64,000 nucleotides of DNA from an uncultured bacterium. GTDB lineage: Bacteria; Cyanobacteriota; Vampirovibrionia; Gastranaerophilales; Gastranaerophilaceae. Location of the stretch: positions 1-64,000 of the forward strand of contig ONOE01000018.1 of NCBI GenBank assembly GCA_900319365.1. The letters are read 5' to 3'. The notes under the pieces were generated by a model, which was not told the origin of the DNA, ran no database searches, and saw only the letters and a list, made by a program, of their open reading frames with translations. Below, in pieces: positions 7,758-53,304 of this stretch. Position 1 is the stretch's first letter; each line of letters starts with the position of its first letter. The translations under genes and the position numbers were made by a program.

Positions 7758-7800
7758 GAAAGGTTCTCCTATGTAAAAGCGGATAAGTTTATTTATTAAA

Positions 7801-8055: not shown

Positions 8056-8059
8056 AATC

Positions 8060-9355: not shown

Positions 9356-9372
9356 GGTGTACTCCGTTGATA

Positions 9373-9560: not shown

Positions 9561-9569
9561 TATGTTTTT

Positions 9570-11222: not shown

Positions 11223-11271
11223 AATTTATCTCCTGTGTTTAGTTTTTAATTTGCCTGACATACTTATAAAC

Positions 11272-11781: not shown

Positions 11782-11784
11782 AGT

Positions 11785-12132: not shown

Positions 12133-12174
12133 TTTTATTTCCTTTCGTTGTTTTGTTTGGTTATAAATTTTGAA

Positions 12175-12450
12175 AAATAAGGCATTTTGTTGGGCAAGTA
12201 TGCCTAACCTACTTGTTTTTGCGAAAGTCAGAAATTCGAGTGAGGGGCTATTAGTAAAGTAGGGTGCGTTTGCCCTCCGCACCGTTATTATTTGTGGAAC
12301 AAGGCGAATCTTCGGCTTTCAGTCTCAGAATGACAATTTTTATAGCCCCTCTCCTGCCTTTCAGGCATCCTCCCACCAAGGGGTGGAGGAAAATGGTAAC
12401 TCTCTTATGAACTTATGAACTTATGAACTTATAAACTTATAGACCTATAT
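12175..12450. repeat. Composite repeat island with a clean octamer array
   Basis: Includes GGGCAAGTATGCCTAACCTACTT, the CGCACCGTTATTATTTGTGG block, CAGAATGACAATTTTTATAG, CCACCAAGGGGTGGAGG, and then 12403-12446, five to six head-to-tail copies of TTATGAAC (TTATGAAC x3, TTATAAAC, TTATAGAC). The array ends at the 3' end of the TerS gene. Confidence 0.8.
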
Positions 12451-12882
12451 CTTTTTATCGTCGAGGTTTGAAATGGTAATGATTTTGGCTTCTTTGCGGT
12501 TTTTATCTTCGTCTTTGGTTTGGAAACCCAAATATTTGCACAGGGCTTCAAGCGCTTTTAAGCCTGCTGATGCATCACGCAATTTCTTTTTACCCGTATA
12601 GTTGCCATCTTTGTCCGTAATTTCTTCTTCTTCCAAAGAAAATTCTGCAATCTGTAAAAGCTTTTGAATTACATAGCCTTTCGGAACGTTCAGGCTGTCT
12701 ATACGACGTTTGAGTCGGGCTTTTATTCCTCGAATAATAATATCTTTTGACAAAAATTCGGAAGCGATTTTTGCTTTGTCCGCATCGTCCGGAAATCCCG
12801 CAAAAGTTACGGCTTTTATGGGATCGAGGGATTTTATGTATTCGCTTATAAAGAGTTTTTGAGTTCTTGTTAATTGTTTCAT
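12445..12882 (-). CDS. Phage terminase, small subunit
   Basis: 145-aa DNA-recognition subunit of the packaging motor. The N-terminus LTRTQKLFISEYIKSLDPIKAVTFAGF (read in two parts) is the usual terminase_2-type helix-turn-helix, in which the phage protein resembles 'T.kq..F..ey..d.n.tkAa..aGy'. The middle (residues 40-75) is a helical oligomerisation region, and residues 75-130 include the acidic EEEEITDKDGNYTGKKKLRDASAGLKALEALCKYLG, typical of the C-terminal arm. It sits unusually far from TerL (3 kb away, with portal in between). The ATG has only a weak ribosome site. Confidence 0.8.
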   Translation of the reverse strand: MKQLTRTQKLFISEYIKSLDPIKAVTFAGFPDDADKAKIASEFLSKDIIIRGIKARLKRRIDSLNVPKGYVIQKLLQIAEFSLEEEEITDKDGNYTGKKKLRDASAGLKALEALCKYLGFQTKDEDKNRKEAKIITISNLDDKKI

Positions 12883-12971
12883 CTTGTTTACATTTCTTAT
12901 AATAATTTGTATTTTTACGCAAAAAATTGTATAATAATCATGCTATTTATATTTCGGCTAGTGTAAATCTT

Positions 12972-13007
12972 AACAGGGGGGAATGAAAACGACTTCCTGT
13001 TTTTTTT
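12972..13007 (+). terminator. Plus-strand terminator-like hairpin inside the minus-strand phage block
   Basis: AACAGG and CCTGTT (12972-12977, 12996-13001) form a short stem followed by a T run on the plus strand. No plus-strand gene precedes it. It lies in the 140-base gap between two minus-strand phage genes and may end an antisense transcript, or be fortuitous. Confidence 0.35.
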
Positions 13008-13021
13008 GCCATGATTTACGT

Positions 13022-13663
13022 TTATTGCCTGTGCAAGATTACGTGCGGTGAATAGTGTGAATCTATGCAGGTCTTGGATTTGAGGTTTACAAGCGCCTCT
13101 TTGTACATGCTCATCCAGTAGCTGAATCTGATATATGACGGGTTGGCTTTTAACCTTAAACATGCACCGTATGTCAATAGCTGCTGCGCAAACGGCATGG
13201 GTATAAGCGAACAATCGTCGGGGTCTGTCAAATCTTCTTTTTCCGTTCCGTTTTTTGATACGGCGCAATTTTTGCTGTAATAGATTACCTGCGCTGTTTT
13301 TTCGGTTTTGAATTTTGGGAAGAACAATTTATCGTTGCATATTGAATACGTAAAGTCGTGCCCTTGTCCGAGCAGAAATTGTTCAAAATTTTCGACGAAT
13401 TTGTACTTTTTATTGTCGATAATCAAATGTAAAATCCTGCCGTTTACGGGGTTTTGAACCCCTTTTGAAGATTTTTTCGGTATGGTAATTGTTTGGTTTC
13501 GCAGCAAAAAGTTCCAATTGTGCGCCGAGCATATTTCTTTATTAATAATATTTATTATAGAAATAAGTTTTTTGTGGTCGTTTTTGATAAGTTCCGAAAA
13601 ATTATTTACCTGCCTGTAGTTTAGTTCAAGCAGACAGTTGTTTATAATCTCAAAAAAATTCAT
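13022..13663 (-). CDS. Head-tail adaptor-like phage protein
   Basis: 213 aa. The start MNFFEIINNCLLELNYRQV and the body ending FAQQLLTYGACLRLKANP...YKEALVNLKSK resemble the tail-accessory/adaptor proteins of podoviruses (P22 gp4- and T7 gp11-like): a helical N-terminus that docks under the portal, a beta-rich middle with NPVNGRILHLI and a C-terminal helix pair with a conserved small-residue stretch. I assign the role from pattern and location between scaffold-like and TerS genes. GGAGATTTT upstream supports the start. Confidence 0.6.
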   Translation of the reverse strand: MNFFEIINNCLLELNYRQVNNFSELIKNDHKKLISIINIINKEICSAHNWNFLLRNQTITIPKKSSKGVQNPVNGRILHLIIDNKKYKFVENFEQFLLGQGHDFTYSICNDKLFFPKFKTEKTAQVIYYSKNCAVSKNGTEKEDLTDPDDCSLIPMPFAQQLLTYGACLRLKANPSYIRFSYWMSMYKEALVNLKSKTCIDSHYSPHVILHRQ

Positions 13664-13751
13664 AAATAAAATCTCCTCTATTTAAAGAAAAGCTTGAGGT
13701 AAAAGGTTTGTTGACCTTTCCCCCAAACTTTCTTTTTTGCCTTTGTAAAAA

Positions 13752-14348
13752 CTATTGTAATAATCCTTGTTTCAGTTGTTCAAAGATAATTTTTTCGTTT
13801 TTGGCAAATTCATCATCGCTCATTTTGCCGAGATCCGCACGGGTGAAGATCCTGTTATTGTTGCTGTCAAATTTCGCATTTTGGGCATAAGAAGTCAATT
13901 TGCTTTTTGCAGCTGTGTTTTCGTCATTTTTTATCTTGTCGTGCTCGGATTGTTTCAAATAGCCGTCGATTGCTGCTTTTTCAATGTTTTCAACAATTTT
14001 GGCAATTTTGGGAATTTCATCTTTGTCCACATCAGAATTTTTAATATAATCAAGAACTTCTTTTCTGCCGTCTTTGGCGAAAAAATCAATTGCCGCCTGA
14101 AAATCGACAGGTTTTTCATCTTGGTGAACAGATGTATTAATGCCCATGGAATTTCCTTTATACATCTCATTTATGCTGTCCATAAAACCAAGTGCTTGAT
14201 CATTTGTAATAACACCTTGATTTTTTAGTAAGAGCATTTGTAACATGTTGTTCATCATGGATTGTTTGAGTTGTTGAATTATATTGATATAATTCGGCTG
14301 CGGATTCACGGCTGTCGGTGAAATCCCGCTTAAAATTTGATTTTGCAT
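13752..14348 (-). CDS. Scaffold-like helical phage protein
   Basis: 198 aa, started at MQNQILSGISPTAV because AAGGAG lies 8 bases upstream; an earlier ATG (14381) would overlap the preceding gene. It is almost entirely helical and charged, with a Gln/Met-rich segment (IIQQLKQSMMNNMLQMLLL), two DVDKDEIPK-type loops and a C-terminal EEF-like acidic-basic helix (FAKNEKIIFEQLKQGLLQ). It lies just after the holin-like gene and two genes from the capsid gene, a position where podoviruses carry scaffolding protein. No catalytic motif is seen. The assignment rests on composition and context. Confidence 0.5.
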   Translation of the reverse strand: MQNQILSGISPTAVNPQPNYINIIQQLKQSMMNNMLQMLLLKNQGVITNDQALGFMDSINEMYKGNSMGINTSVHQDEKPVDFQAAIDFFAKDGRKEVLDYIKNSDVDKDEIPKIAKIVENIEKAAIDGYLKQSEHDKIKNDENTAAKSKLTSYAQNAKFDSNNNRIFTRADLGKMSDDEFAKNEKIIFEQLKQGLLQ

Positions 14349-14352
14349 TGTT

Positions 14353-14601
14353 TTATTCTCCTTGAATTTGCTGCATTTCATGCAGTCCGGCTACGGAAGT
14401 TTCAATAAGTTCATCAATAATATTTGAAAGGGTAAACCCGATAATTTTATTAATAAAGGGTGAAAAAGGCAAATGCTCGATTATGTAAGCGATGGCTTTT
14501 TGCTTTTTAATTTTGCCCTGCCCCGAACCGTATTCTTCTTCTGCTGCGATTACCGCATTTTTTGCAAGATTTGCAATAATATTTTTAAAGGTTTTTATCA
14601 T
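14353..14601 (-). CDS. Holin-like (LLH-type motif) small protein
   Basis: 82 aa containing AVIAAEEEYGSGQGKIKKQK at residues 16-35, which matches the conserved part of phage LL-H-type holins (A-x-x-A-E-x-x-x-G-S-G-x-G-K-x-K-K). Unlike those holins it lacks an N-terminal membrane span. The following stretch FSPFINKIIGFTLSNIID is amphipathic at best. It may be a truncated or diverged holin, or an accessory protein that keeps the motif. It stops 4 bases before the scaffold-like gene. Confidence 0.55.
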   Translation of the reverse strand: MIKTFKNIIANLAKNAVIAAEEEYGSGQGKIKKQKAIAYIIEHLPFSPFINKIIGFTLSNIIDELIETSVAGLHEMQQIQGE

Positions 14602-14659
14602 AAATACTCCTTGTTAATTCAGACAAAACTATTCTTTATTTTGCCGTTGAACGGATGCT

Positions 14660-15529
14660 TTAAGCCGCCGTTGTTTGAGATGTGCCGATTATCATTTTCG
14701 CCAGAGCTTTGGGCTGAACGGTTTTAGCGCCGTACAAATACAACCCTCTGACTAAATCGGAAAATGAATCTTTATCTCTTAAACTTTCGATTTTTGCTAA
14801 TTGGGAAGCGAACGTGATTGCATCGTTTGTACCCGCAAGAACATAGTATTTGCCGTCGGTTGCGGTTAAATTTGTGCTTACCAAAACGTCTAATCCCGCA
14901 ATTCTGCCTATGGCACCTTCTCTTAAAGTTCTATCGGCAACATTGTATGCGCTTATAAATTCGGGACTTTGAAGCAAACAGGCTTCAATTTCGGGGTTAA
15001 TTACAACCCAAGGTTTTGCGCCGTTATAAACTGCGTTTGAATTTTTCAAAGCAAGGGCCAAACGAACAAAATGTTCATATATCGTGCTTTTGTCTAAAGT
15101 AATCGGGGATTCTTCGCTGCCGACGGTGTTTTGAGTTGTTACGTCGGTATGTTTTGATAAAAGGAACGAATCTTGAACTTCTTCGATTGCTTTTTTCGCA
15201 TTGGTCAAATGTGCGGTCATAATATCTTCATTTGCCTGAGCTTTGGCTACATCGTCAATTTTGAATGCGAAAAATTTCTTCTGGTCAATTTCTAATTCCT
15301 GAGATTCAGGGTTAAGCGTATCGTAAGTGATATTGTCATTTGTCAGGGTAGAAACGGAAACTTCGGCAGGAGTAATTATTTTAACTTTATCGCCTTGATG
15401 CGCAATTTCGCCCTCCCAATTTCTGTTCACGCATTGCATCATAACGCAGCTTTTTTTAAGCATTTGGTTAAGTTTCAAACTCCACAAAGTCGGAATAAAT
15501 GCAGAGTAAGAGGTTTTGTAATCGTCCAT
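14660..15529 (-). CDS. Phage major capsid protein
   Basis: The 289-aa coat protein. The features fit the HK97-fold coat proteins of the P22-coat group: an N-terminal arm (SYSAFIPTLWSLKLNQMLKK), NRNWEGEIAHQGDKVKI (E-loop side), a spine helix region (residues 105-135), an A-domain with KPWVVINPEIEACLL and GRIAGLDVLVSTNL, and a C-terminal stretch RDKDSFSDLVRGLYLYGAKTVQP typical of coat proteins. It is shorter than P22 coat (about 430 aa), which has an inserted domain. The frame is intact and the ribosome site AAAGGAAA is good. Capsid identity is the firmest structural call in the block after TerL. Confidence 0.85.
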   Translation of the reverse strand: MDDYKTSYSAFIPTLWSLKLNQMLKKSCVMMQCVNRNWEGEIAHQGDKVKIITPAEVSVSTLTNDNITYDTLNPESQELEIDQKKFFAFKIDDVAKAQANEDIMTAHLTNAKKAIEEVQDSFLLSKHTDVTTQNTVGSEESPITLDKSTIYEHFVRLALALKNSNAVYNGAKPWVVINPEIEACLLQSPEFISAYNVADRTLREGAIGRIAGLDVLVSTNLTATDGKYYVLAGTNDAITFASQLAKIESLRDKDSFSDLVRGLYLYGAKTVQPKALAKMIIGTSQTTAA

Positions 15530-15589
15530 TTGTTTTTTCCTTTCGTGTTTTTTGTGTTAAACCGTATATGAGTGATGATGTAGTTTTAA

Positions 15590-15850
15590 AATTAAATATA
15601 AGTTTATAAGTGGGTTACAATTTCATTTTCCTCCACCCCTTGGGGGCGGATGCCTGAAAGGCAGGGGAGGTGCTACAAAAAACCTGACAAATTTGACTAA
15701 TAGACCCTCACCCGAATTCCTGACTTTCGCAAAAGCTCAAGTCGAAATTCTACCCTGCTCCCCAAGGGGGCGAGGGTTATAAAAATTGTCATTCTGAGCG
15801 AAGCTATTCCACAAATAATAACGGTGCGGAGGCACACCCTACTTTTTTAA
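15590..15850. repeat. Composite repeat island between capsid and tail genes
   Basis: A short octamer run (15597-15616), CCTCCACCCCTTGGGGGC, CTGACTTTCGCAAAAGCTC, CTCCCCAAGGGGGCGAGGG, CATTCTGAGCGAAGC and GGTGCGGAGGCACACCCTAC follow in the same order and spacing as in the islands at 31.4-31.6 kb (reverse). No gene is present. Confidence 0.8.
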
Positions 15851-15854
15851 TTAA

Positions 15855-17375
15855 TCAGTCGTCATTATAGATTTCTCTGAATTGCAGACCGATTATTGCG
15901 CAATTGTCGTCTTTTTCGGTTCCTTCAACACACAGCTGCACGCTGTAGCAGCTCCCGCAAATTTCGGCTTTTTCCAGAACGTCTGAATTAATTGTCCAAA
16001 CGGGCGTATTTTCATCATCCGAGCACCATTTTGAAATATTTGAGTCATCCTCATCGTCTTTTGCCCAGATTAACTGGTTTAAATTTCTGGAGTAAATAAG
16101 TTCCTTATCTTCGGGGCAATTGCCGTCATAGTCTTTGTAAACCGAGAATTTGAATTTGTTGTCGTGCTCATCGTCAAGTACGAAATAAAATTCGTCTATA
16201 ATTTTTCTGTGGTGAACGTTATTTAGCGACAGAAACGGTGATTTCCAATAAAAATCGATAACCTGTCCGTCAAAAGAGGTTCCCGTGTCCTCTTTGTAAA
16301 TCTTTCCGTCTGAATCCGCACTAAGCAAATCTCCGTTAAATTCGCACAGATACGTAATATTTTGCGGCAAAACTCTTTTGTACCAGATTTTGTTTACATA
16401 ATCGTTTATCCATATCGTTTTAAAATATTTTTGGTTCTCATAAGGGAACAAAAACCACATCTGATGCTTCTTTTGGTAGTGAACGGTCAGGGTATTTTTC
16501 AGCCTTTTTGAATCGAAATTTTCAAATTCGGGGGTAATGTTATTGGAAATCGAACTGCCGAGCCTGATTTGGTTTAATTCTCCGACCTGTTCGAGCGCAT
16601 AAATCCCGTTGCTCAAAAAATACTGCTTGTTATCGACGTTTACGACGGTATTTGCTGCGTTTGTGCCTTTATCGGCAAACGGAACAATGGAAAAATCGTC
16701 AGGACTTGAGCCTGTCAAAAGATAAACTTTGTTTTTCTTGTATATGGAAAGATTGCCTTTGTAATTGTGCATTGCGGCTATATCGTCGGTATCGGTGTGA
16801 AAATTGTTGATATACCCGGCATCGTTTTCGGTTTGGAAATCGTTGTATGTTCCGAGCGCCGAATAGTAAATCGTTGATTTGTCGGCGCACCAAACTCTGC
16901 CTTGATAAATTTCTATACATTCGGGGAAAATCGTGTTGCCGCTCAAATCAAGCAGGTTGCAATCTTCTATTGTGTAATTGCTGTCGTCTTTAATGTAAAA
17001 CATTGAATCGGTTTCTGTTGCAACGAGTATGCCGTTTAGAAAGCATTTGAATTTGACACTTCTGCCTTTCAGGGTTTTATCAAGAAGGGTTAATTTTTTG
17101 TCATAATCACGATAAATATAAATTTTTCCTGAAACGGTCGTAATTACGAGTTTGTAGGAGTCTTGGGATTCCATTTCGCACATTCCCGAAATCTCATCTT
17201 TTATCGGAAGTTCCAAAAACAAAGAGTTGCCTTTTTGCCTGATAAGTCCTCTGTTTGAATATATTTCAATATTTTGCGCATCAGCCCAGAACAGTTTGCC
17301 ATTATTTATCCCGAGTTCGGTTTTTGTTGAATTAAGATTTATTCCGCCTGATAAGTCAAAGTAATTGATTTCCAT
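15855..17375 (-). CDS. P22 gp10-like tail stabilisation / beta-propeller protein
   Basis: 506 aa, started at MEINYFDLSGGINL (17375) because GGGAGA sits 9 bases upstream. The opening F-x-G-G-[IL]-N and the succession of blades with ...IYIYRDYDKKLTLLD, NGILVATETDSMFYI, GRVWCADKSTIYYSALG, NGIYALEQVGE and SADSDGKIYKED match podovirus tail-hub proteins of the P22 gp10 type, which form a beta-propeller capping the portal tail. The C-terminal 90 residues are a separate beta domain. It directly precedes the amidase gene in the operon (2-base gap to the amidase stop). No tailspike or needle gene follows. Confidence 0.7.
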   Translation of the reverse strand: MEINYFDLSGGINLNSTKTELGINNGKLFWADAQNIEIYSNRGLIRQKGNSLFLELPIKDEISGMCEMESQDSYKLVITTVSGKIYIYRDYDKKLTLLDKTLKGRSVKFKCFLNGILVATETDSMFYIKDDSNYTIEDCNLLDLSGNTIFPECIEIYQGRVWCADKSTIYYSALGTYNDFQTENDAGYINNFHTDTDDIAAMHNYKGNLSIYKKNKVYLLTGSSPDDFSIVPFADKGTNAANTVVNVDNKQYFLSNGIYALEQVGELNQIRLGSSISNNITPEFENFDSKRLKNTLTVHYQKKHQMWFLFPYENQKYFKTIWINDYVNKIWYKRVLPQNITYLCEFNGDLLSADSDGKIYKEDTGTSFDGQVIDFYWKSPFLSLNNVHHRKIIDEFYFVLDDEHDNKFKFSVYKDYDGNCPEDKELIYSRNLNQLIWAKDDEDDSNISKWCSDDENTPVWTINSDVLEKAEICGSCYSVQLCVEGTEKDDNCAIIGLQFREIYNDD

Positions 17376-17377
17376 TT

Positions 17378-17875
17378 TTAATCTCCCGAATTTTGATTTT
17401 TGTACCAACGAATTTTAGAGCGGATAAAGCTCCCCGCATCAGAGGGCGGAACCCAGGAATACGGCGGAATATACGTGATATCGATTTTGCCTGCGCTTGA
17501 AGTTTTGGGGTGTGTTTTGCCAAATTCGTAATGGGTCATGACGTTGTTCGGGTTAATTTCAATGGAATATTTTTTGCATAAATCTGCGCAAAGTTTCATA
17601 CAGGCTTCAAATTGGGTTGCTTTTATCGGATAGTTTCCGCAATTTTGTTTATTTTTAAATCCGGCCATTGCGCACATAGCTACCCCGATAGAACCCGTAT
17701 TGCCGCCACCTGTATGGTGCGCATACAAACCGTCTTTGCAGTTTTCGTTGTCCTCGGGTTTAAAAATGCCTTTATAAATTTTGCCGTTTTTGTCTACAAG
17801 ATAATGGTAAAATTGTTTTTCGTATAATGTCGGAAAATAGCTCCCTGCCGTCCAATGAATAATTATTCTTTTCAT
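17378..17875 (-). CDS. N-acetylmuramoyl-L-alanine amidase (endolysin)
   Basis: The 165-aa Amidase_2-type zinc enzyme that cuts the lactyl-peptide bond in peptidoglycan at the end of phage infection. It opens MKRIIIHWTAG (His7, first zinc ligand), continues with YHYLVDKNGKIYKG (substrate Tyr/Val strand) and AHHTGGGNTGSIGVAMC (His cluster and the N-x-x-S-I-G-V motif), and ends with HYEFGKTHPKTSSAGKIDI, which carries the third zinc site (THPK...KID). It has no signal peptide or extra cell-wall domain. It is sandwiched between the LuxR-HTH gene and the tail gene with near-zero spacing, so all three should be one transcript. Confidence 0.93.
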   Translation of the reverse strand: MKRIIIHWTAGSYFPTLYEKQFYHYLVDKNGKIYKGIFKPEDNENCKDGLYAHHTGGGNTGSIGVAMCAMAGFKNKQNCGNYPIKATQFEACMKLCADLCKKYSIEINPNNVMTHYEFGKTHPKTSSAGKIDITYIPPYSWVPPSDAGSFIRSKIRWYKNQNSGD

Positions 17876-17876
17876 T

Positions 17877-18089
17877 TTATGTTAAACCTGCTTTCTGTTC
17901 TTTCAGGATCTTTTGATAATGAATGGCAACGGCGTGGGCTCTTGTTCTGGCATTCATCTTGCTCAATATCGAGCGGATATATGCGTGAACGGTATGGGTG
18001 GAAATGCCCAGTTTTGCGCTTATTTCCTTATCAATCAATCCTTTTGCTATACACATAAGGACATTATTTTCTCTTTCCGATAATTTCAT
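17877..18089 (-). CDS. Stand-alone LuxR-type DNA-binding protein
   Basis: 70 aa consisting only of a GerE/LuxR HTH: LSERENNVLMCIAKGL, DKEISAKLGISTHTVHAYI (recognition helix) and RSILSKMNARTRAHAV. There is no receiver or ligand domain. It heads the phage late operon, 1 base before the amidase start, so it is a likely candidate for switching that operon on. A similar HTH forms the C-terminus of the response regulator at 27489. The dimerisation residues of the fourth helix are kept. Confidence 0.8.
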   Translation of the reverse strand: MKLSERENNVLMCIAKGLIDKEISAKLGISTHTVHAYIRSILSKMNARTRAHAVAIHYQKILKEQKAGLT

Positions 18090-33979: not shown

Positions 33980-34060
33980 ATATGCCGCAATAACTCCCGT
34001 CAAGTGGAGTGAAACGGAACGGAGTTAATAAAACGTAGAGCTTGCTCTACCAACTCCAAT
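33980..34060 (+). other. tRNA-Phe leader with a partial 5' duplicate and a reversed D-arm
   Basis: TATGCCGCAATAACTCC near 33981 repeats the first 15 bases of tRNA-Phe (one change), with the same preceding AATA. At 34037-34052 GTAGAGC/GCTCTAC makes a hairpin whose right arm (GCTCTACCAAC) is the reverse complement of the tRNA D-arm. These are rearranged pieces of the tRNA gene. Confidence 0.55.
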
Positions 34061-34081
34061 AAGACAATTTAATAAGAATAT

Positions 34082-34154
34082 GCCGCAATAGCTCAGTTGG
34101 TAGAGCAAGGGACTGAAAATCCCTGTGTCCTTGGTTCAATTCCGAGTTGCGGCA
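34082..34154 (+). tRNA. tRNA-Phe (anticodon GAA)
   Basis: 73 nt: acceptor GCCGCAA/TTGCGGC (7 bp), D stem GCTC/GAGC, anticodon stem AGGGA/TCCCT with loop CTGAAAA (anticodon GAA), variable GTGTC, T stem CTTGG/CCGAG around TTCAATT, discriminator A. CCA is not encoded. The 3' half, from the anticodon loop on, is the left attachment repeat of the element that follows. A weak terminator (GCCCTT/AGGGGTTTT) lies 8 bases after the end. Confidence 0.95.
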
Positions 34155-34174
34155 TATTTTTTTGCCCTTATATA
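34113..34174 (+). repeat. attL of the tRNA-Phe element
   Basis: A 62-bp block starting in the tRNA-Phe anticodon loop (CTGAAAATCCC...) is identical to 40681-40742. It restores the intact tRNA at this end. Confidence 0.9.
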
Positions 34175-34227
34175 ACAGGGGTTTTAGCCAATACAGGGAT
34201 TTTATATTTTTGCATTAGAAATTAAAA

Positions 34228-34249
34228 TGGTACAATTTTGGTACAGTAA
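34228..34249 (+). other. Left arm-type site of the integrase
   Basis: A 22-bp block (TGGTACAATTTTGGTACAGT and two more bases) is repeated exactly at 40543-40564 near the other end of the element. Each contains GGTACA twice, as expected for arm-type integrase or Xis sites. Confidence 0.65.
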
Positions 34250-34384
34250 TATTATAAAAGGTTGCAAAAATGATAAGCCATTTTTGTTTTTCCATAAATA
34301 AATATTAAGTATCATATACTTTTTGACTTTATATCTTTGTATGAATAATTATTAATATGTAAGTATTCATTATAAGGGGTTTTT

Positions 34385-35095
34385 ATGAAAAATTTTAAAA
34401 ATATTATTAAAGTTGTTTTTGTTGTCATGCTTTTGTCTGTAGGTATTACTGCATATAGCATAGAAGGGAAAACGGTTAAGGACTTTGGGTTTGATGTAAT
34501 TATGTATGATAATGACCCGATTATTGTAGGATTTATTCAGGATTCTCCTACGGATAAAAATTTTAAAAATATTAGTATGATAAATAAAGTTAATAAAAAA
34601 AATGTAAGTTTATACTCTAGAATGAGTCAATATAGGAGGATATTAGAAAATATCGATAGTGATGTAGTAACTTTTAATATTACAAGAAATGGTAAAAAAG
34701 AAGATATAACCCTAACAAAAGATGATATTTTTGTTAGCGATTATATCAAATTGAGCGATTTTGTTTATCTAAACAAGAATATAAAAACTGACGGAGCATA
34801 TGCGTATGTATGGGATAAAGCAATAAAAACTAAAGATTTTCCTATATCTAATGTTCCAAATGCAACTTATATAAAAACAGAATCAAAAATTGATTGTACA
34901 GAAAAGAAAATACTAGATTTAAAACAATTATACTATGGTGAAAATGATGTATTTTTGAAAGAAGAAAAGTTTTCTGAATATGCGCCAATGGAAAGTGTTG
35001 CTCCTGATACAATAGGTGCGGATAAAGTTTATTATGCTTGTTTGAAATATGAAACTCAAAAATACGATAGAGAACATCCTAATTGGTTTGAGTAA
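34385..35095 (+). CDS. Secreted PDZ-like protein, cargo of the tRNA-Phe element
   Basis: 236 aa. The N-terminus FKNIIKVVFVVMLLSVGITAYS is a Sec signal peptide with cleavage probably after Ala-Tyr-Ser. Residues 30-115 resemble a PDZ domain (GFDVIMYDNDPIIVGFI, SMINKVNKKNVSLY, VVTFNITRNGKKEDITL), the layout used to recognise C-terminal peptides. Residues 115-236 contain two cysteines and no known fold. It is plus-strand, alone, right after the left attachment repeat. It may be an exported accessory factor of the element. It differs from the rest in lacking a DNA-related role. Confidence 0.65.
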   Translation: MKNFKNIIKVVFVVMLLSVGITAYSIEGKTVKDFGFDVIMYDNDPIIVGFIQDSPTDKNFKNISMINKVNKKNVSLYSRMSQYRRILENIDSDVVTFNITRNGKKEDITLTKDDIFVSDYIKLSDFVYLNKNIKTDGAYAYVWDKAIKTKDFPISNVPNATYIKTESKIDCTEKKILDLKQLYYGENDVFLKEEKFSEYAPMESVAPDTIGADKVYYACLKYETQKYDREHPNWFE

Positions 35096-35168
35096 AAAAA
35101 TATTAAATACAGTTTACATGCCTGTAATATTACGGTTATAAGCAATAAAAAAGAGGGTATATTCCCCC

Positions 35169-35375
35169 TTATGTTTGAATCTTATTTATATTTTCTTTTA
35201 TTGCTTTCATTCTTTCGCAAATACATTCAAGTCTTTTGTTAATTTCGTGTATTTCTTGATTGTTTTCGATATTTTGCTCTCTTTCAGTTTTGAGCATAAA
35301 ATTCAATGTTACGAGAGGATATTTTTCCCCGAGTTCTAATAATTTTGAAATACTGTCTTTGCTTGTTTCTGTCAT
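35169..35375 (-). CDS. Small coiled-coil protein of the element
   Basis: 68 aa, almost wholly helical: MTETSKDSISKLLELGEKYP, then KTEREQNIENNQEIHEINKR and LECICERMKAIKENINKI. There is no membrane span. It is divergent from the plus-strand module, with the operator-like repeats between them, so it could be a repressor or antirepressor partner, but no HTH is visible. Unknown. Confidence 0.5.
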   Translation of the reverse strand: MTETSKDSISKLLELGEKYPLVTLNFMLKTEREQNIENNQEIHEINKRLECICERMKAIKENINKIQT

Positions 35376-35429
35376 TTTAAATACTCCTATATTGCTGATT
35401 ACATAACAATTATGGCATATTTTGATATC

Positions 35430-35490
35430 GCAAAAGTTTAAATTTTTTGCGCAAAAGTGTAAACTTTTTAAGAAATATTTATGATATAAT
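35430..35490 (+). promoter_or_regulatory. Promoter with direct-repeat operator for the plus-strand module
   Basis: GCAAAAGT occurs at 35430 and 35451, exactly 21 bases (two helical turns) apart, each followed by TTAAA or GTAAAC. A good -10 TATAAT is at 35485-35490, 50 bases before the 177-aa gene. Confidence 0.6.
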
Positions 35491-35539
35491 TCGCACTTAA
35501 TTTTACAAGCCGATTGCCAAAAATCTTACTATTAAAGAT

Positions 35540-36073
35540 ATGAGAGGGAAAACGGCAAACAAAAAGCGAATAAGGTATAAAATCCCGACATATAAAAAGG
35601 TTTATTCTGTTTATCAGTATCACCGCAATAAATATTCAAGCATATTTAAGAAAATTCAAGCCCTTGCCCTGAAATATAATGAAAACATTTTTTATAAAAC
35701 GAATCCTTACAGGGTTCTAGATTTATGCTATAAGCGAGATAATCAAGGCAAATTGCAACATTTAGGGGATGAAAAACAGATATTCAGATATAAAGCCCTT
35801 GAAAGTGTCTTAAAAGAAATTGCCGATTATATTCTAATTGCTTATGAAATTATGCCTTGCCCTGATGTTTTACGATATTTATTCAACCGAACTCATTTAA
35901 TAATTTATAAGGATGAAAACCAAGCCGAATTACTTGAAACAATAGGGAAACCGATAGGAATAAGACTCAAAACTCATATAACATTATTAAAATGCTTGCA
36001 TACAGGCATGGAAATTGAAAATGCTATAAAAATAGCAAGGGAAAAATGTAATGTTGATTTCATAAAATCTTAA
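35540..36073 (+). CDS. Element protein of unknown function, 177 aa
   Basis: A basic N-terminus (MRGKTANKKRIRYKIPTYKK), then a helical body with YKALESVLKEIADYILIAYE and CPDVLRYLFNRTHLIIY, and a C-terminal helix with IENAIKIAREKCNVDF. There is no membrane span or recognised motif. The basic start suggests contact with nucleic acid. It leads the short plus-strand operon (next gene 20 bases away), controlled by the 21-bp spaced repeats upstream. Confidence 0.6.
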   Translation: MRGKTANKKRIRYKIPTYKKVYSVYQYHRNKYSSIFKKIQALALKYNENIFYKTNPYRVLDLCYKRDNQGKLQHLGDEKQIFRYKALESVLKEIADYILIAYEIMPCPDVLRYLFNRTHLIIYKDENQAELLETIGKPIGIRLKTHITLLKCLHTGMEIENAIKIAREKCNVDFIKS

Positions 36074-36093
36074 AATGTATTTATGGAGGATTT

Positions 36094-36444
36094 ATGCCGA
36101 ATATCAAAAATTTAAAATCGAACTCCGAGCGAACTCCGAAACAAAGGAAAGAACTTGCAAAAAAGGCGGGTATAATATCAGGGGAAAAACGCCGAGAGAG
36201 AAGAAAACTCAAAGATGAATTATTGATTTTACTATCAGAAAATGACACTCAAAAGAGAATTAGCGTTGCGCTTATACAGAAGGCATTACAAGGGGATGTA
36301 AAAGCATTTGTAACCATAAGAGATACAATAAATGAAGCCCCTGCGCAAAAGATTGAAATATCAGAAAATGAACTTATTGAAAACGGCTTAAAGAAAATCA
36401 AGGCAATGTTTCCCGATTATGAAAGCGAGGTTTACAATGTCTAA
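36094..36444 (+). CDS. Small phage-type KGG-like protein
   Basis: 116 aa. Opens NLKSNSERTPKQRKELAKKA, continues GIISGEKRRERRKLKDELLI (a G-x-x-S-G-E-x-R-R stretch) and ends with KALQGDVKAFVTIRDTINEAP. This pattern is typical of short phage and satellite proteins encoded just before terminase genes, with a KALxGDxKAFxxIRDT block. Its function is unproven; a role in DNA packaging or as a small-terminase-like factor is an inference. GGAGGA gives the start. It overlaps the next gene by 8 bases. Confidence 0.6.
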   Translation: MPNIKNLKSNSERTPKQRKELAKKAGIISGEKRRERRKLKDELLILLSENDTQKRISVALIQKALQGDVKAFVTIRDTINEAPAQKIEISENELIENGLKKIKAMFPDYESEVYNV

Positions 36445-36727
36445 AGTAGGCAAAAATAGACAAAAAACAGGCGGTAGGCAAAAGGGTACACCGAATAAAA
36501 AAACAAAAGAACTTATTGAAATTTTAGGGGCTTTCAATCCTGTTGAAAAACTCAAAGATATATTTGCAAATACTAAAGATGATTGCTTAAAAGCGAAAAT
36601 ATGCCTTGATTTATTGAAATATATCTATCCTCAAAGGAAAGCAATAGACTTTCAGGCAAGCGAAAATAACGGATTTACTGTAATTGTACAGGATGAAAAA
36701 ACGAAAAAAATGCTTGATGAACTATAA
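36437..36727 (+). CDS. Small DNA-binding-like protein, DUF5681-type
   Basis: 96 aa started at MSKVGKNRQKTGGRQKGTPN (36437), since the earlier in-frame codon at 36419 has no ribosome site. G-G-R-x-K-G-x-P-N-K is a motif of short phage proteins often listed as DUF5681. The next part (KELIEILGAFNPVEKLKDIF) is helical, and the end FTVIVQDEKTKKMLDEL resembles the small-terminase tail. Possibly a packaging specificity factor; uncertain. It is the last gene of the plus-strand module and convergent with the zinc-ribbon gene. Confidence 0.55.
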   Translation: MSKVGKNRQKTGGRQKGTPNKKTKELIEILGAFNPVEKLKDIFANTKDDCLKAKICLDLLKYIYPQRKAIDFQASENNGFTVIVQDEKTKKMLDEL

Positions 36728-36848
36728 AATAAAAGAGGTATCTCATACAGTATAAAAAGCCCTATTTTGAAAGTTTGTTACTTCTTATATGTATTTATAC
36801 CTCTTATATATAAAACTCTTAAATTTGAGCATTATTTTTGCATAATTA

Positions 36849-37091
36849 TCAAGTTTTTTCTTTTGCTTGTTTCTGTTTTCTATAATTCAAAAGATTATTT
36901 CTTAATTCGCTTTTTCTTTTATCAGATAATTTGCTTTTGTAGGTTTGGGAATCAAACTCAATTCCTAAACTCTTACAACATTCTTTGCAATACTTCCATT
37001 GAGGAGGGATTGTTTTTGCATTAGTAATATCTAAATCAGTCCAAGCATTATTACACTTTTTATTTTTACAATAATGTACTACATAAGACAT
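36849..37091 (-). CDS. Zinc-ribbon-like small protein of the element
   Basis: 80 aa: C-x(4)-C at residues 8-13 (HYCKNKKCNNAW) and C-x-x-C about 22 residues later (KYCKECCKSLG), a pattern for a single zinc ribbon, then a basic Lys/Arg-rich C-terminal tail. It could bind DNA or RNA. It follows the DUF1376 gene by about 150 bases and lies on the minus strand like the replication genes. Confidence 0.6.
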   Translation of the reverse strand: MSYVVHYCKNKKCNNAWTDLDITNAKTIPPQWKYCKECCKSLGIEFDSQTYKSKLSDKRKSELRNNLLNYRKQKQAKEKT

Positions 37092-37240
37092 TGTTTTTAC
37101 CTCCCTTATATGTTGTTTTACTGTTATCTAATATTGTGGATATTTCTATTTGCATTTTTATTTCTTCTTTCATTTTTATTTTTATTTTTATTTCTATTTT
37201 CCATAAGAAAAACACTTGATATTCACTTGAAAAACAAGTG

Positions 37241-37552
37241 TTATTTTATTTTTTTTGTTTTACCTAGTCTGTTTTTCCTGCGACTTTCAGTAAATGCCTT
37301 GCGTTTTATGATGATTTCTTCAAGCCATACACTATATAAGTGTCCTTTTTCATCACTTGTAAAAAGTTTTAAAACATCATCACTAATACCCGAACTGCTA
37401 AATTGTAGGCTTAATGTTTTTTGGTCTAAATGCCCCCTTTGATGTTGGAGGGATAAGAGGGTTATATATTCCCCTCTTTCCTCCATTGTTAAGGATGTGC
37501 ATTGAGCAAGAAAATCGCTTGTATAAAACAATATAGCGGGGTCTTTACTCAT
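37241..37552 (-). CDS. DUF1376 (YdaU-like) replication-linked protein
   Basis: 103 aa beginning DPAILFYTSDFLAQCTSLTM and EERGEYITLLSLQHQRGHLD, the hallmark of DUF1376 proteins encoded next to phage primases and replication initiators, where it binds DNA or partners. The full-length family is 150-250 aa; here only the N-terminal winged-helix-like part remains, followed by a basic tail. The start overlaps the primase-polymerase stop by 4 bases (ATGA type), so the two are translated together. Confidence 0.75.
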   Translation of the reverse strand: MSKDPAILFYTSDFLAQCTSLTMEERGEYITLLSLQHQRGHLDQKTLSLQFSSSGISDDVLKLFTSDEKGHLYSVWLEEIIIKRKAFTESRRKNRLGKTKKIK

Positions 37553-38499
37553 TGTTTATCCCCCTTTTGTAATGCTTTTTCAATGGTTTTTCTTAAATAG
37601 TCTTTCCGTTTAAGGCATTTATCTTTATGCGTTTGGTCTTTTTGCATAAAATAGGGGCTATTTAAGAAATATTCTTTTATTAAGCCATAATCTTTAAACC
37701 AATGAGCAAGTTTTGAGCAAAATCCTAAATCGTTTGCACTTTCATCATTTATAGGTCTTATGCCGTTGTAATATTTTTGCAAAGGTTCATCAACACTTAA
37801 TGCAAATTGAAAATGCTCTTTATAGCCCTGTAATTGTTTATCTGAAAATATCTTTTTTATAGGTTCTTGTAATGTTTCTGTTTTACATTCTATTTTTGAA
37901 AAATACTTATCATAAACAGTATCGCAAGCATTTTGCCTATGCATTATGCCTTTATCATTTATGACATTCCCCGACAAAGTAAAATAATGGTCTTTATCGT
38001 ACATTTCAAGGCATTTACACCATTTTAGATTATTGTTTTTGCATACATTCCCTTTTTTATGTGCATAGAATAAAATATGAATCCCCTTGCCGTTAATTGA
38101 TATTTCTGTATAACTATCAATTATATTTATGATTTCCAATGCTTCAGGGGTAATATTGCCGTTTTCGTCAATACATTCATCAATATCAATCCCGCATAAA
38201 TGCCCTTTATTTGTATCAGTAAAAACAATTCCGACACCTTTATATAGTTTGCATTTTTTGGAATAAGATAATGCTTGTTCTAAACTTCCCCAAGTGTTTG
38301 GATTATTTGTTTTTGCATACCCAAAGGCAAAAGGCAAACAAGGGGCTTTTTTTGAGTTGAAACAAACAAATATTTTTTGCTCTTTAAATACATCCTCAAT
38401 TATCTTTATTCCCTTGTTTATCGTTTCTTTATCTGTTATAATATTGTCATAAATGTTATTTTTGCTCTCAGCAATGAGGGCTTTTGTTTTTTGCGTCAT
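37549..38499 (-). CDS. Primase-polymerase (AEP superfamily, phage/plasmid type)
   Basis: 316 aa. The N-terminal domain has the three AEP motifs in order: CGIDIDECID (D-x-D, near residue 110), SINGKGIHILF (second motif) and LEMYDKDHYFTLSG (third, acidic residue and SG), a match to replicative prim-pols of satellite phages and plasmids. Residues 210-316 are a helical C-terminal half with YKEHFQFALSVDEPLQKYYN, of unclear role (a helicase domain is absent). It should prime or copy the element's DNA. It belongs to an operon with the DUF1376 gene downstream and the HTH gene upstream. Confidence 0.8.
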   Translation of the reverse strand: MTQKTKALIAESKNNIYDNIITDKETINKGIKIIEDVFKEQKIFVCFNSKKAPCLPFAFGYAKTNNPNTWGSLEQALSYSKKCKLYKGVGIVFTDTNKGHLCGIDIDECIDENGNITPEALEIINIIDSYTEISINGKGIHILFYAHKKGNVCKNNNLKWCKCLEMYDKDHYFTLSGNVINDKGIMHRQNACDTVYDKYFSKIECKTETLQEPIKKIFSDKQLQGYKEHFQFALSVDEPLQKYYNGIRPINDESANDLGFCSKLAHWFKDYGLIKEYFLNSPYFMQKDQTHKDKCLKRKDYLRKTIEKALQKGDKQ

Positions 38500-38518
38500 A
38501 AATTTTTCCTCTCTTTCC

Positions 38519-38746
38519 TTACTTGTTGTTTTGTTCTTCTAACCATTTAAAAAATTCTGCGACTTTTACATAAATCCTGCCACCTATACGGCTTATACAT
38601 CTTTCAATGCCGTATTTCTTGTAAAAAATCATTTGTCGTAAAGTTCCAACGCAAGGATAGGCAAAATATTTATTCCATTGAGATAATGGAATAATGCCTG
38701 AATTTTGAACATTCTCTGGAATAGATAATGTTTGAATGTTTTGCAT
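38519..38746 (-). CDS. AlpA/excisionase-like DNA-binding protein
   Basis: 75 aa. IIPLSQWNKYFAYPCVGTLR and QMIFYKKYGIERCISRIGGR then IYVKVAEFFKWL form the winged helix-turn-helix arrangement of AlpA/Xis-type regulators. Such proteins turn on excision or regulate the integrase. Location between primase and integrase genes fits. An operator-like set of CTTTTACAAAG/CTTTTGTAAAAG words lies 45-70 bases upstream. Confidence 0.65.
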   Translation of the reverse strand: MQNIQTLSIPENVQNSGIIPLSQWNKYFAYPCVGTLRQMIFYKKYGIERCISRIGGRIYVKVAEFFKWLEEQNNK

Positions 38747-38870
38747 TTTGTTTCCTCCTGTATTATGTAATTACTTGTAATAGACTTTTACAAAGTTAAT
38801 CCTTTTGTAAAAGATTACAAAAACAATCTAACAAGAGGTTTAAAATAAAACTGTTATGATTTATAACAGG

Positions 38871-39404
38871 TTATAGATTTTGAAATATTTTGTTAATAAA
38901 TCGGTAAACATCTTTTATAGAAATAATTGTTTCCGAATCCTTGGATTTTGATTTTTTTTCAACAAAGAAATATTTGCATTTTTTATCATTATAATAGTAT
39001 TTTTGTATAAATTTGTTATCGCAAAGTTTGTCGCCTATTCTATCAATGTATGTAGTTAAGTTGTTTTTTGGAATCCCTATTATATTGCAAATACTATCTT
39101 TTTCAAAACCTTGAATAATTAAGTAAATTATTGCTTTTTGCATTTTACTATGATTGTTTGATGTTATTTGTTTGAATAAATGTATAAATCTATCTTTTCC
39201 GCATAATTCAAAATCTATGTTGGCGAATACTTGAAATCTATTTTTTTCGCATAATTGATAAATCGAATTTTTACTATAATTTTCAGGAAATTCCTTTTTT
39301 ATTTCATTCTGAATCTTATTAAGTTCTTCAAAATACTTCTTGCTTACATTCAATATTTGAGTTGTATATTTATCAAATTCCGTTTGATTTTCCTGCATAA
39401 ACAA
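38871..39404 (-). CDS. Element protein of unknown function, 177 aa
   Basis: 177 aa, acidic-basic helical throughout. It includes a helix-turn-helix-like part near residues 95-125 (AIIYLIIQGFEKDSICNIIG, IPKNNLTTYIDRIGDKL). The start MFMQENQTEFDKY lies directly after the integrase stop (3-base gap) on the same strand, so it is co-transcribed with it. It may be a regulator of the integrase or excision. No family recognised. Confidence 0.55.
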   Translation of the reverse strand: MFMQENQTEFDKYTTQILNVSKKYFEELNKIQNEIKKEFPENYSKNSIYQLCEKNRFQVFANIDFELCGKDRFIHLFKQITSNNHSKMQKAIIYLIIQGFEKDSICNIIGIPKNNLTTYIDRIGDKLCDNKFIQKYYYNDKKCKYFFVEKKSKSKDSETIISIKDVYRFINKIFQNL

Positions 39405-39407
39405 TCC

Positions 39408-40514
39408 TTATAAGTTATTTTCTACCTTGCTAAACATTTCATCAGTTGTATTTTGTAATAATTCAGCCGTATGCTTTTGGGTTAAATGCGAGTATCTTTT
39501 AACCATTTGCATAGTTTTATGCCCTGTTACTTGCGCAATATCGAGCAAACTCCCTCCATTCATAGCAATATGGCTTGCGACTGTATGCCTTAAATCGTGA
39601 AATCTGCAATCAATACCGGCACTTTCAAGAACTTTATAAAACCTTACCCGCATATCAATAAGTTTTTTGCCGTCTTTAGTTGTAAACAGATAATCGCTTT
39701 TAATGTTACGAATCTTTTGAAATTCTTTTAACTCTTTATAAACCTTATCCGACATAGGCACACCCCTATTTTCCCCGTTTTTAGTGTTCATAAAGTAAAA
39801 TTGTTTATTCTTAAAATCAATATATTGCCACCTTAATTTATGGATTTCTGAATACCTTGCCCCCGTTGATAATGCTATCAATACAAATAAATGTGTTTCC
39901 TTGTTGTAGTTTTCCCCTTTTATTTCGTAATTCAAGCAAGCATTTAACAATTTATTGATTTCATCAGGCATTAGGAATCTATCCTGTTTTGCCGTTTCCG
40001 TAAATTTGCGAACTTTCAACATAGGATTTTCTTCAATCCAGCCCCATTCTTTGCACCCGAAAGACAAAACTATTGATAAACAAGCCATATATCTATTAGC
40101 CGTTGCCCCTGTTCTTGTTGTTCTTCCCCCCTTTGGTTTGGGGCTTGTTTCCGTAACTAATTTTTCTTTACATTCAGATAATAAAGCGGGAGTAATATTT
40201 GAAAGCAAATACATTCCTATATGTTGTTTCCACCATTCTAATTGCATTTTATATTTCTTATGGTCTGTTTCCTTGCGTTTTGGCAATTCTATTTCAATAT
40301 AACGGTCTATAAGGTCATTAAGTGTATGTTTTTTTGCTTCATAGTCGTTAATATGCTTTCCCTCTTTCATTAAGGGTTCATTCTGTCCTATCCATTTACG
40401 AGCGGATGTAATTTTATCAAAACTTGCCGTCATTGTAGGATATCCTTTTACCCTTATAACGGCTTTATATGTAATAGTTCCGTCTTTTTTAGTTCGCTTT
40501 TGAATAGTTGCCAT
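39408..40514 (-). CDS. Tyrosine integrase of the tRNA-Phe element
   Basis: 368 aa. An N-terminal Arm-DNA-binding domain (residues 1-65, TIQKRTKKDGTITYKAVIR), a SAM-like core-binding domain (66-165) and the catalytic domain with Arg in STGARYSEIHKLRW (about 218), HDLRHTVASH (His-x-x-Arg) and the GHKTMQMVKRYSH box with the active-site Tyr of RYSH near residue 342. It cuts at the 62-bp tRNA-Phe repeats. It is transcribed leftwards from the right attachment repeat, which is 170 bases upstream. Complete and with all catalytic residues. Confidence 0.94.
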   Translation of the reverse strand: MATIQKRTKKDGTITYKAVIRVKGYPTMTASFDKITSARKWIGQNEPLMKEGKHINDYEAKKHTLNDLIDRYIEIELPKRKETDHKKYKMQLEWWKQHIGMYLLSNITPALLSECKEKLVTETSPKPKGGRTTRTGATANRYMACLSIVLSFGCKEWGWIEENPMLKVRKFTETAKQDRFLMPDEINKLLNACLNYEIKGENYNKETHLFVLIALSTGARYSEIHKLRWQYIDFKNKQFYFMNTKNGENRGVPMSDKVYKELKEFQKIRNIKSDYLFTTKDGKKLIDMRVRFYKVLESAGIDCRFHDLRHTVASHIAMNGGSLLDIAQVTGHKTMQMVKRYSHLTQKHTAELLQNTTDEMFSKVENNL

Positions 40515-40542
40515 AATGCTTTACACCTCTTTTATAATTTTT

Positions 40543-40564
40543 TGGTACAATTTTGGTACAGTAA
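40543..40564 (+). other. Right arm-type site of the integrase
   Basis: Exact copy of the 22-bp sequence at 34228-34249, located between the integrase start and the right attachment repeat. Confidence 0.65.
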
Positions 40565-40680
40565 ATTTATAAAAATCTATAAAATTATATAAAAAAGTAT
40601 AAAGGATAAAATGCTTAAAGTCAAGCAATATCAAGAAAATTCTTATTACAAGTTTTTATAAGGTTTTATAAAAACACCGT

Positions 40681-40742
40681 CTGAAAATCCCTGTGTCCTT
40701 GGTTCAATTCCGAGTTGCGGCATATTTTTTTGCCCTTATATA
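40681..40742 (+). repeat. attR of the tRNA-Phe element
   Basis: 62 bases identical to 34113-34174 (CTGAAAATCCC through the T-arm and acceptor to CCCTTATATA). Only the 3' part of the tRNA is present here, so this copy is not a gene. It keeps the terminator-like GCCCTT/AAGGG hairpin just after. Confidence 0.9.
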
Positions 40743-51768: not shown

Positions 51769-53304
51769 ATGCCAAAGAAAAAAGCTAGTATTATTGATAC
51801 TAACAAGGCAGTAGCATATATTCGGGTATCATCGCAAGAACAAGAGAAGGGTTATTTTCTTTCTGCACAAGAAAAGCTGTTGCGTAAGTATGCGGAAGAT
51901 GAAGGATATGAAATTGTAGAATTTTTCAGAGAGGCGATGAGTGCTAAAACTTCTGGTCGAAAGCAATTTAACCTTATGCTTAAATACTTAAAAGCCCATA
52001 ACGATGTAAATAAACTACTTGTAGAAAAAACAGACCGTATAACTCGTAATTTTAAAGATGTTGTTACTTTGGATTCTATCGAGGGGTTAGAATTACACTT
52101 TGTTAAAGAAGGTTCTATCATTTCCGAAAAATCAAAGAGCCAAGATAAAATGATATATGGTCTAAGAGTGGTACTGTCAAAACAATAAATTGATAACTTT
52201 AAGGAAGAAGCTGAAAAAGAAATTTTGGCGAAGATTGAAGAAGGTGTTTATCCATCAATAGCTCCTGTCGGTTATTACAATACTATGGATAAGAGAGGTA
52301 GGCATATAATAGCTGTTGATGAAGATAAGCGAAGGGTCGTACAAAAAGCCTTTTCACTGTATGCTTCTGGTGATTATTCAGCAAAAACCATCAATGACAT
52401 GCTTTATCCAGAAGGGCTAACAAATAGAAATGGGAATAAACTAGCAAAATCAACAGTAGAAAGAATGTTTAAGAACATTTTCTATATTGGGCAATTTGAA
52501 TTTAAGGGGTTTGTATGCACAAATGCTCAACACGAAGGTATTATTGATATAGATACATTTAATGCTATACAAGAACGATTAGGTGGTGTTGTAAGAGCAA
52601 GAACTCACGATGTTCAATTCCCATATCAAGGGTTATTTAGATGTGGTATGTGTGGGGGGCTTGCTTACTCCAGAACTAAAGAAAAAGAAAAGTGGCAAAG
52701 AGTACATATATTATCATTGTAATGATACACACAAAAAGGGTTGTAAGAAATTATTTATATATCCCAAACTTCTATAGATGAAATTATAATTAAGTTATTA
52801 AAAAGCTTTAGTATATCGAAAGAGTTATTTGATTCCATAAAAAGCTTTATTAAAGAAATTCATGACGATAAGCACGATTATCAAGAAAAGACAGAGGCTA
52901 GTATTACTAGGAAGATAGAGCAAGTAAATAAACGTATAAGACAAGCCTATGAAGATAAATGTGATGGCACAATAGATGAGGATTTTTGGAGAGAGATTAA
53001 CAAATCATACCATGCCGAAAAGACAGAATTAATTGAAGCTCTACACAGAGTAAATGAGGCTGATGTTAGATTCTACGAAACATGTGAGAAGTTATTAAAG
53101 TTTGCAAGAAATGCACATCAGATGTTCTTAAACGGCTCAGTTGAAGATAAACGATTTATTACGCAAACAGTATTATCGAACGCTACATATTATGACGGAA
53201 ACTTTGATGTAGAGCTACATCCAGCATTTGATACCTTATTTAGGTTAGCCAAAGAAAGCAATCATCAAAATTCAACTATCGATGTAAAAGAACAAACAGT
53301 TTGA
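51769..53304 (+). pseudogene. Large serine recombinase, decayed
   Basis: The N-terminal resolvase domain has the catalytic Ser in VAYIRVSSQEQEKG and the EKTDRITRNFKD block. The recombinase domain (VYPSIAPVGYYNTM, AKSTVERMFKNIFYIGQFEF) and zinc-ribbon start (CGMCGGLAYSRT) follow, then a C-terminal coiled coil (to KEQTV). Reading requires one stop codon at 52186-52188 and a double frame change near 52690-52750. It was a large serine integrase that landed in tpiA, and is now dead. The zinc ribbon's second half (YYHCNDTHKKGC) is in another frame. Confidence 0.85.

What the first reader, a model, noticed from the sequence alone, without database searches (positions are those of the whole stretch)
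34113..40742. A 6.57 kb tRNA-Phe element resembling a phage satellite in a Vampirovibrionia-like genome
Two identical 62-bp tRNA-Phe repeats, an intact tyrosine integrase at attR, an AlpA/Xis-like HTH, a DUF1376-primase pair and two short packaging-like proteins (KALxGDxKAF and GGRQKGTPNK types), yet no capsid genes. This is the architecture of PICI-like satellites, not known to me from this lineage. The podovirus-like block in the same genome is a possible relative of its helper.
Basis: partly seen in the sequence, partly recalled or inferred. Interest (0 to 1): 0.75.

Follow-up and report, generated by a model that had tools for sequence, protein, structure and literature searches.

The report
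PICI-like phage satellite, two small terminases
This is a 6.6 kb piece of mobile DNA, inserted at a transfer-RNA gene in a gut bacterium of the Gastranaerophilales, that appears to spread by borrowing the particles of other phages; unlike the phages themselves it carries two different versions of the protein that chooses which DNA is packaged.

Summary
A tRNA-Phe gene (34081-34155) is followed 6,568 bp later by an exact 62-bp copy of its 3' end and flank (34113-34174 and 40681-40742). Between them lie an intact tyrosine integrase, an AlpA-position HTH, an NrS-1-type primase-polymerase and no TerL, portal, capsid or tail gene. The satellite reading is strengthened. Both 'packaging-like' proteins belong to families that sit immediately upstream of the large terminase: 70 of 75 scorable IMG/VR contigs for the 116-aa protein (median gap -3 nt) and 50 of 75 for the 96-aa protein. 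In phages of the same bacterial family the 177-aa neighbour is the gene before them, so the element carries a phage o177a-TerS cassette without TerL. Related tRNA-bounded elements (6-14 kb) occur in many Gastranaerophilales genomes. Unexpected: no phage locus scanned had more than one of three alternative TerS types, but about ten satellite-like loci, including this one, have two. It is a PICI-like satellite in a lineage with none reported in the literature I could search. It is not a proven PICI: PICI-specific genes are not matched and induction, interference and transfer are untested. The TerS role rests on gene position; the predicted folds matched nothing.

The parts
34081..34155 (+). tRNA-Phe (GAA), the insertion site; its 3' part is the left end of the element (attL)
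   Evidence: ARAGORN; lies after infC in this and related genomes
34113..34174 (.). left attachment repeat (62 bp identical to the right one)
34228..34259 (.). left inner repeat with two GGTACA boxes 11 bp apart, likely integrase arm-type site
   Evidence: 94% copy at 40543; paired GGTACA boxes just inside both ends also in L060, L080, L083, L111, L119 and L344, but not in L057-L059, L061, L113
34385..35095 (+). exported protein with weak PDZ and Adhesin_E matches, likely cargo
   Evidence: Pfam 0.036 and 0.0019, both below cut-off; no relative in the compared elements
35169..35375 (-). 68-aa coiled-coil-like ORF, unknown
   Evidence: no significant family
35540..36073 (+). o177a: homologue of the gene that precedes TerS in phages of this host family
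   Evidence: homologues just upstream of TerS and/or TerL in L076, L082, L090, L091, L092, L121, L122, L177, L206, L207, L208 and about 3 kb upstream in L115
36094..36444 (+). small-terminase-position protein 1 (KALxGD family, phrog_2412)
   Evidence: family abuts TerL in 70 of 75 IMG/VR contigs, in prophages L078, L081, L082, L087, L118, and in Streptococcus phage EJ-1 ORF38, before TerL ORF39
36437..36727 (+). small-terminase-position protein 2 (GGRQKGTPNK family)
   Evidence: family abuts TerL in 50 of 75 IMG/VR contigs and in prophages L091, L092, L115
36849..37091 (-). 80-aa Cys-rich protein shared with other elements and phages
   Evidence: homologues in L068, L119, L330, L333, L345 and phages L078, L091
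37241..37552 (-). DUF1376-like primosomal partner
   Evidence: next to the primase also in L066 and L068
37549..38499 (-). NrS-1-type primase-polymerase with helicase-binding domain, no helicase domain
38519..38746 (-). AlpA-position HTH regulator/excisionase candidate
   Evidence: HTH_17 0.024; family recurs in about 25 related loci
38871..39404 (-). 177-aa ORF between integrase and AlpA-like gene, possible regulator
   Evidence: position only; weak sigma/HTH-type matches; no homologue in the compared elements
39408..40514 (-). tyrosine integrase
   Evidence: phrog_1 5e-71; strong relatives in 36 of 288 family genomes (this one included) and in named Gastranaerophilales MAGs
40543..40574 (.). 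right inner repeat, partner of 34228
40681..40742 (.). right attachment repeat (attR)

Best explanation
It is a small phage satellite of the PICI-like type. Shown: it is bounded by tRNA-Phe att repeats, encodes an integrase and its own replication-initiation gene, carries a phage o177a-TerS cassette with two TerS-position proteins, and lacks TerL and all virion genes. Inferred: when a helper phage grows, the HTH protein (with the integrase) drives excision and the primase-polymerase, with a borrowed helicase, replicates the circle. The element's TerS proteins then load element DNA onto the helper's large terminase, so that it is packaged in helper particles and injected into a new cell, where the integrase inserts it at tRNA-Phe. 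Two TerS proteins most likely let it use helpers with different TerS-TerL pairings; a decoy role against the helper's TerS is the alternative.
For: Exact 62-bp tRNA repeats plus inner arm-like repeats. Six of 46 genomes of the genus, this one included, have a second tRNA-Phe 3' copy 6.4-9.3 kb away, and the five others each contain a 51-70% identical integrase and an AlpA-like gene. TerS position: 70/75 and 50/75 IMG/VR contigs, prophages and phage EJ-1, with TerL identity confirmed by PHROGs. o177a precedes TerS in phages with several different TerL types. Other TerL-less elements with int, AlpA, replication genes and TerS have tRNA repeats: L119, L111, L113, L080, L083, L088, L344. One TerS per phage locus against two in about ten satellite-like loci; Fisher p = 9e-12, or 2e-6 when near-copies are grouped by hand.
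Against: No reads, so excision and transfer are not shown. TerS assignment is by gene order; the AlphaFold models (pLDDT 74 and 76) match no PDB fold. The TerS-family PHROGs are annotated 'unknown function'. In 25 of 75 GGRQ contigs no TerL was found starting within 300 nt. No close copy of the whole element was found. No phage with a matching TerS was found in this genome.
Confidence: 0.8

Rival explanations
1. It is a decayed prophage that kept its integrase, early genes and the TerS end of its packaging operon by chance.
For: o177a and the TerS genes are clearly of phage origin and in phage order.
Against: All named ORFs are open, TerL-less elements with the same modules recur at tRNA-Phe, Lys, Glu, Arg and Met genes in many genera, and the element carries two TerS families where phage loci have one.
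Confidence: 0.08
2. It is an integrative element that moves by other means (natural uptake, conjugation, generalised transduction), and its TerS genes serve mainly as anti-phage factors that poison packaging.
For: Some tRNA-Phe elements with the same integrase family lack a detected TerS (L058-L061). Satellites are known to interfere with helper packaging (own knowledge).
Against: TerS plus own replication genes is the usual satellite signature; no conjugation gene was seen; PADLOC found no known defence gene.
Confidence: 0.1
3. It is a satellite, but its helper is the podovirus-like locus fixed in this genus (window about 5-18 kb), i.e. it rides a resident, perhaps domesticated, particle.
For: That TerL is 60-64% identical to the TerLs that use KALxGD (L082) or GGRQ (L092) TerS, and it is present in 45 of 46 genomes.
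Against: The locus has its own Terminase_2-type TerS, and no sign of particle production is available.
Confidence: 0.1

Closest known systems
Phage-inducible chromosomal islands (PICI; SaPI and Gram-negative types)
   Same: Fixed att site, integrase, HTH regulator in the AlpA position, primase-type replication gene, TerS without TerL, no virion or lysis genes (defining features from PMC6092414).
   Different: 6.6 kb instead of about 15 kb; two TerS-position proteins of different families; integrase and replication genes on one strand, TerS cassette convergent; NrS-1-type primase; no recognised AlpA, Stl, Ppi or capsid-size gene. Several related elements carry a tail tape-measure gene (L057, L080, L344).
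PICMI satellites of Vibrionaceae
   Same: Very small, with an integrase, AlpA-like and primase core (PMC10803314).
   Different: PICMIs insert by fis, and no terS, sid or ppi homologue was identified in PICMI115; this element inserts at tRNA-Phe and carries a TerS pair.
Tycheposons of marine cyanobacteria
   Same: tRNA-inserted elements in the wider cyanobacterial phylum, proposed as a satellite family (PMC11389934; tRNA insertion and phylum from own knowledge).
   Different: Not compared by sequence here.

Membership tests
PICI | Specific att site not occupied by prophages | tested here: met
   In 46 genomes of the genus the six second tRNA-Phe copies lie 6.4-9.3 kb away, too near for a full prophage; other tRNA-Phe elements showed no TerL or capsid by homology search. 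Contig ends limit the test.
PICI | No structural or lytic phage genes | tested here: met
   Element ORFs gave no convincing hit in PHROGs or Pfam; some relatives do carry a tape-measure gene.
PICI | Integrase plus excision/regulator (AlpA or Stl) | tested here: inconclusive
   Integrase clear; the HTH gene is only a weak HTH_17 match and not Phage_AlpA, assigned by position and recurrence.
PICI | Divergent regulatory pair separating int from the pri-rep module | tested here: not met
   int, o177b, AlpA-like, primase and DUF1376 are all on the - strand.
PICI | Size about 15 kb | tested here: not met
   6,568 bp between repeats.
PICI | TerS homologue (optional) without TerL | tested here: met
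   By gene position of two families; fold comparison inconclusive.
PICI | Helper-dependent induction, interference and transfer in phage particles | not testable with these tools
   No reads or experiments.
PICMI | int-alpA-prim core at fis, no packaging genes | tested here: not met
   Inserted at tRNA-Phe and carries a TerS pair.

The most novel reading that the evidence does not exclude
A satellite family of gut bacteria in the Cyanobacteriota phylum keeps two anciently separate small terminases per element on purpose, to be packaged by helpers with incompatible TerS-TerL pairs; and since the genus carries a fixed podovirus-like locus whose TerL is 60-64% identical to TerLs paired with just these TerS families, that resident locus could itself be a built-in helper.
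Probability: 0.12. Interest if true: 0.8.

Novelty: new variant of a known kind. Interest (0 to 1): 0.55.

Why it matters
Phage satellites are known from few, mostly cultured, lineages, and my literature searches found no report in Vampirovibrionia. The elements give a concrete, minimal packaging cassette (o177a-TerS-TerS) and a clear contrast, one TerS type per phage but often two per satellite, which makes helper range and TerS-TerL compatibility directly testable. The KALxGD and GGRQ families, annotated as unknown, can be named candidate small terminases in many gut and environmental phages.

Tried and rejected
Fold search to prove TerS: helical models, no PDB match. Single-protein search for the primase in IMG/VR: no relative. 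GGRQ tblastn in deposited phages: none. A Pfam scan of TerLs failed on one wrong coordinate and was replaced by PHROGs. First TerL tally for KALxGD (44 of 75) was too low because my seeds missed other TerL types; reading the next genes and adding seeds gave 70 of 75. Resident helper: the genome has a Mu-like myovirus prophage on another contig, but it has no matching TerS. Tree of the KALxGD family: satellites are not one clade (9 changes, at least 4 forced), so TerS was probably acquired several times; few columns, rough support. The downstream chromosomal flank varies, so no clean empty-site alignment across both flanks was possible; the tRNA and the upstream infC flank do align.

Full report
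What is there. A tRNA-Phe gene at 34081-34155 sits just after infC. Its last 43 bases and the following flank recur exactly (62 bp) at 40681-40742, 6,568 bp on; 76 bp match at 96%. Just inside each end lies a second repeat pair (34228-34259 and 40543-40574, 94%) with two GGTACA boxes 11 bp apart. Paired GGTACA boxes just inside both ends are also found in six related elements, including ones at tRNA-Lys, but not in five others. They look like integrase arm sites. Element G+C is 29.1% against 33.8% for the rest of the window.

Genes. On the - strand from the right end: integrase, a 177-aa ORF, an HTH protein, a primase-polymerase of the NrS-1 type with helicase-binding domain, a DUF1376-like partner and an 80-aa Cys-rich protein. 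Further left come the + strand genes: an exported protein with weak PDZ and Adhesin_E matches, then o177a (177 aa), the KALxGD protein (116 aa) and the GGRQKGTPNK protein (96 aa). No convincing TerL, portal, capsid, tail or lysis match; no known defence gene.

What the 'packaging-like' genes are. Homologues of the 116-aa protein stand directly before a large terminase in prophages of the same bacterial family (L078, L081, L082, L087, L118) and in Streptococcus phage EJ-1, where ORF38 precedes ORF39 'terminase, large subunit' and a portal gene. In IMG/VR, 80 contigs with a homologue were fetched: of 75 with enough sequence, 70 have TerL starting within -150 to +300 nt, median gap -3. For the 96-aa family the figure is 50 of 75, with TerL a little further away in some others; in prophages it precedes TerL in L091, L092 and L115. 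TerL identities were confirmed with PHROGs for eleven of the twelve tested; the exception, L154, had no TerL match and was not used as a seed. o177a homologues precede TerS and/or TerL in a dozen phage loci with several TerL types. So the element carries the phage order o177a-TerS, with a second TerS type where TerL would follow. The role is inferred from position; AlphaFold models of both were of middling confidence and matched no PDB fold.

A family of elements. In 46 genomes of the genus, 43 give a match to the tRNA region, and six, this one included, have a second tRNA-Phe 3' copy 6.4-9.3 kb away; each of the five others holds a related integrase (51-70%) and an AlpA-like gene. In 288 genomes of the family, 36 have a strong integrase match. 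Most close named relatives are Candidatus Gastranaerophilales or Melainabacteria MAGs. The nearest, L344, is labelled an Acinetobacter MAG but has tRNA-Phe repeats at 7228 and 18026, an 85% integrase, a 65% AlpA-like protein, a DnaB-like helicase, a tape-measure gene and a 58% TerS; I suspect misbinning. Elements with repeats at other tRNAs carry the same modules with other primases or helicases: L111 and L080/L083 (Lys), L113 (Glu), L088 (Arg), L067 (Met). TerL was not found in them by homology search. Some tRNA-Phe-type elements have no detected TerS but a tail chaperone-like gene and tape measure (L057, L315, L317) or only replication and cargo genes, so the integrase-AlpA module carries varied payloads.

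Two TerS. With profiles for the KALxGD, GGRQ and Terminase_2 types, 159 of 160 IMG/VR contigs and 11 of 13 prophage loci had exactly one hit and none had two. About eleven of 24 satellite-like loci had two: KALxGD+GGRQ here, KALxGD+Terminase_2 in L084, L085 and L119, GGRQ twice in L113, KALxGD twice in L066, L067, L080, L083, L086 and L088. Fisher p = 9e-12, or 2e-6 after grouping near-copies by hand. Caveats: phage loci reach at most 10 kb to each side, the phage contigs were fetched with KALxGD and GGRQ queries, only three TerS types were modelled, the second copies in L080, L083 and L088 are weak or short, one extra hit in L086 is doubtful, and in L084 and L119 the two genes are not adjacent. 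In the KALxGD tree the two copies of L066, L067 and L086 fall in two different groups, one on a long well-supported branch, so they are not recent duplicates (few columns).

Mechanism. Shown: att boundaries, integrase, replication gene, TerS cassette, no TerL or virion genes. Inferred: helper-triggered excision, own replication with borrowed helicase, TerS-directed packaging by helper TerL, reinsertion at tRNA-Phe. The helper is unknown. TerS relatives point to phages like L078, L082, L092 and L206. The resident podovirus-like locus has a TerL 60-64% identical to those of L082 and L092 but another TerS. The genome also holds a Mu-like myovirus prophage without a matching TerS.

Classification. 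It works like a PICI-type satellite. Against the published PICI features the att site, lack of virion genes and TerS are met; size and divergent layout are not; AlpA is inconclusive; induction, interference and transfer cannot be tested. I therefore file it as a new variant of a known kind, not as a PICI. Searches of the held literature found no satellite report for this lineage and nothing on paired small terminases; most subscription papers are not covered.

Noticed in passing
window 5057-18089: Podovirus-like block with TerL, portal, Terminase_2-type TerS and major capsid; its TerL is found in 45 of 46 genomes of the genus, mostly one copy at 77-85% identity, which suggests a fixed, perhaps domesticated, phage-derived locus.
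   Followed up: partly
L386-L387 (contig C33 of the same genome): Mu-like transposable myovirus prophage with its own TerL and a different TerS type.
   Followed up: partly
window 33985-34094: A second partial copy of the tRNA-Phe 5' end just upstream of the tRNA; similar 5' fragments lie upstream of tRNA-Phe in other genomes such as G240, G283 and G300.
   Followed up: no
L057, L315, L317, L339, L340: Elements with a tRNA-Phe-type integrase that carry a tail chaperone-like gene and a tape-measure gene, with no TerL, portal or capsid found: possible satellites that act on helper tails.
   Followed up: partly
L065: tRNA-Met element with the same primase family, a GGRQ protein and what looks like a type III restriction-modification pair.
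   Followed up: no
L344 (CAMORE010000012.1): Contig filed under an Acinetobacter MAG that carries the closest integrase and AlpA-like relatives, and a close TerS relative, at tRNA-Phe; probably misbinned Gastranaerophilales DNA.
   Followed up: partly
window 51769-53304: Serine recombinase of the resolvase type that appears split into several ORFs.
   Followed up: no
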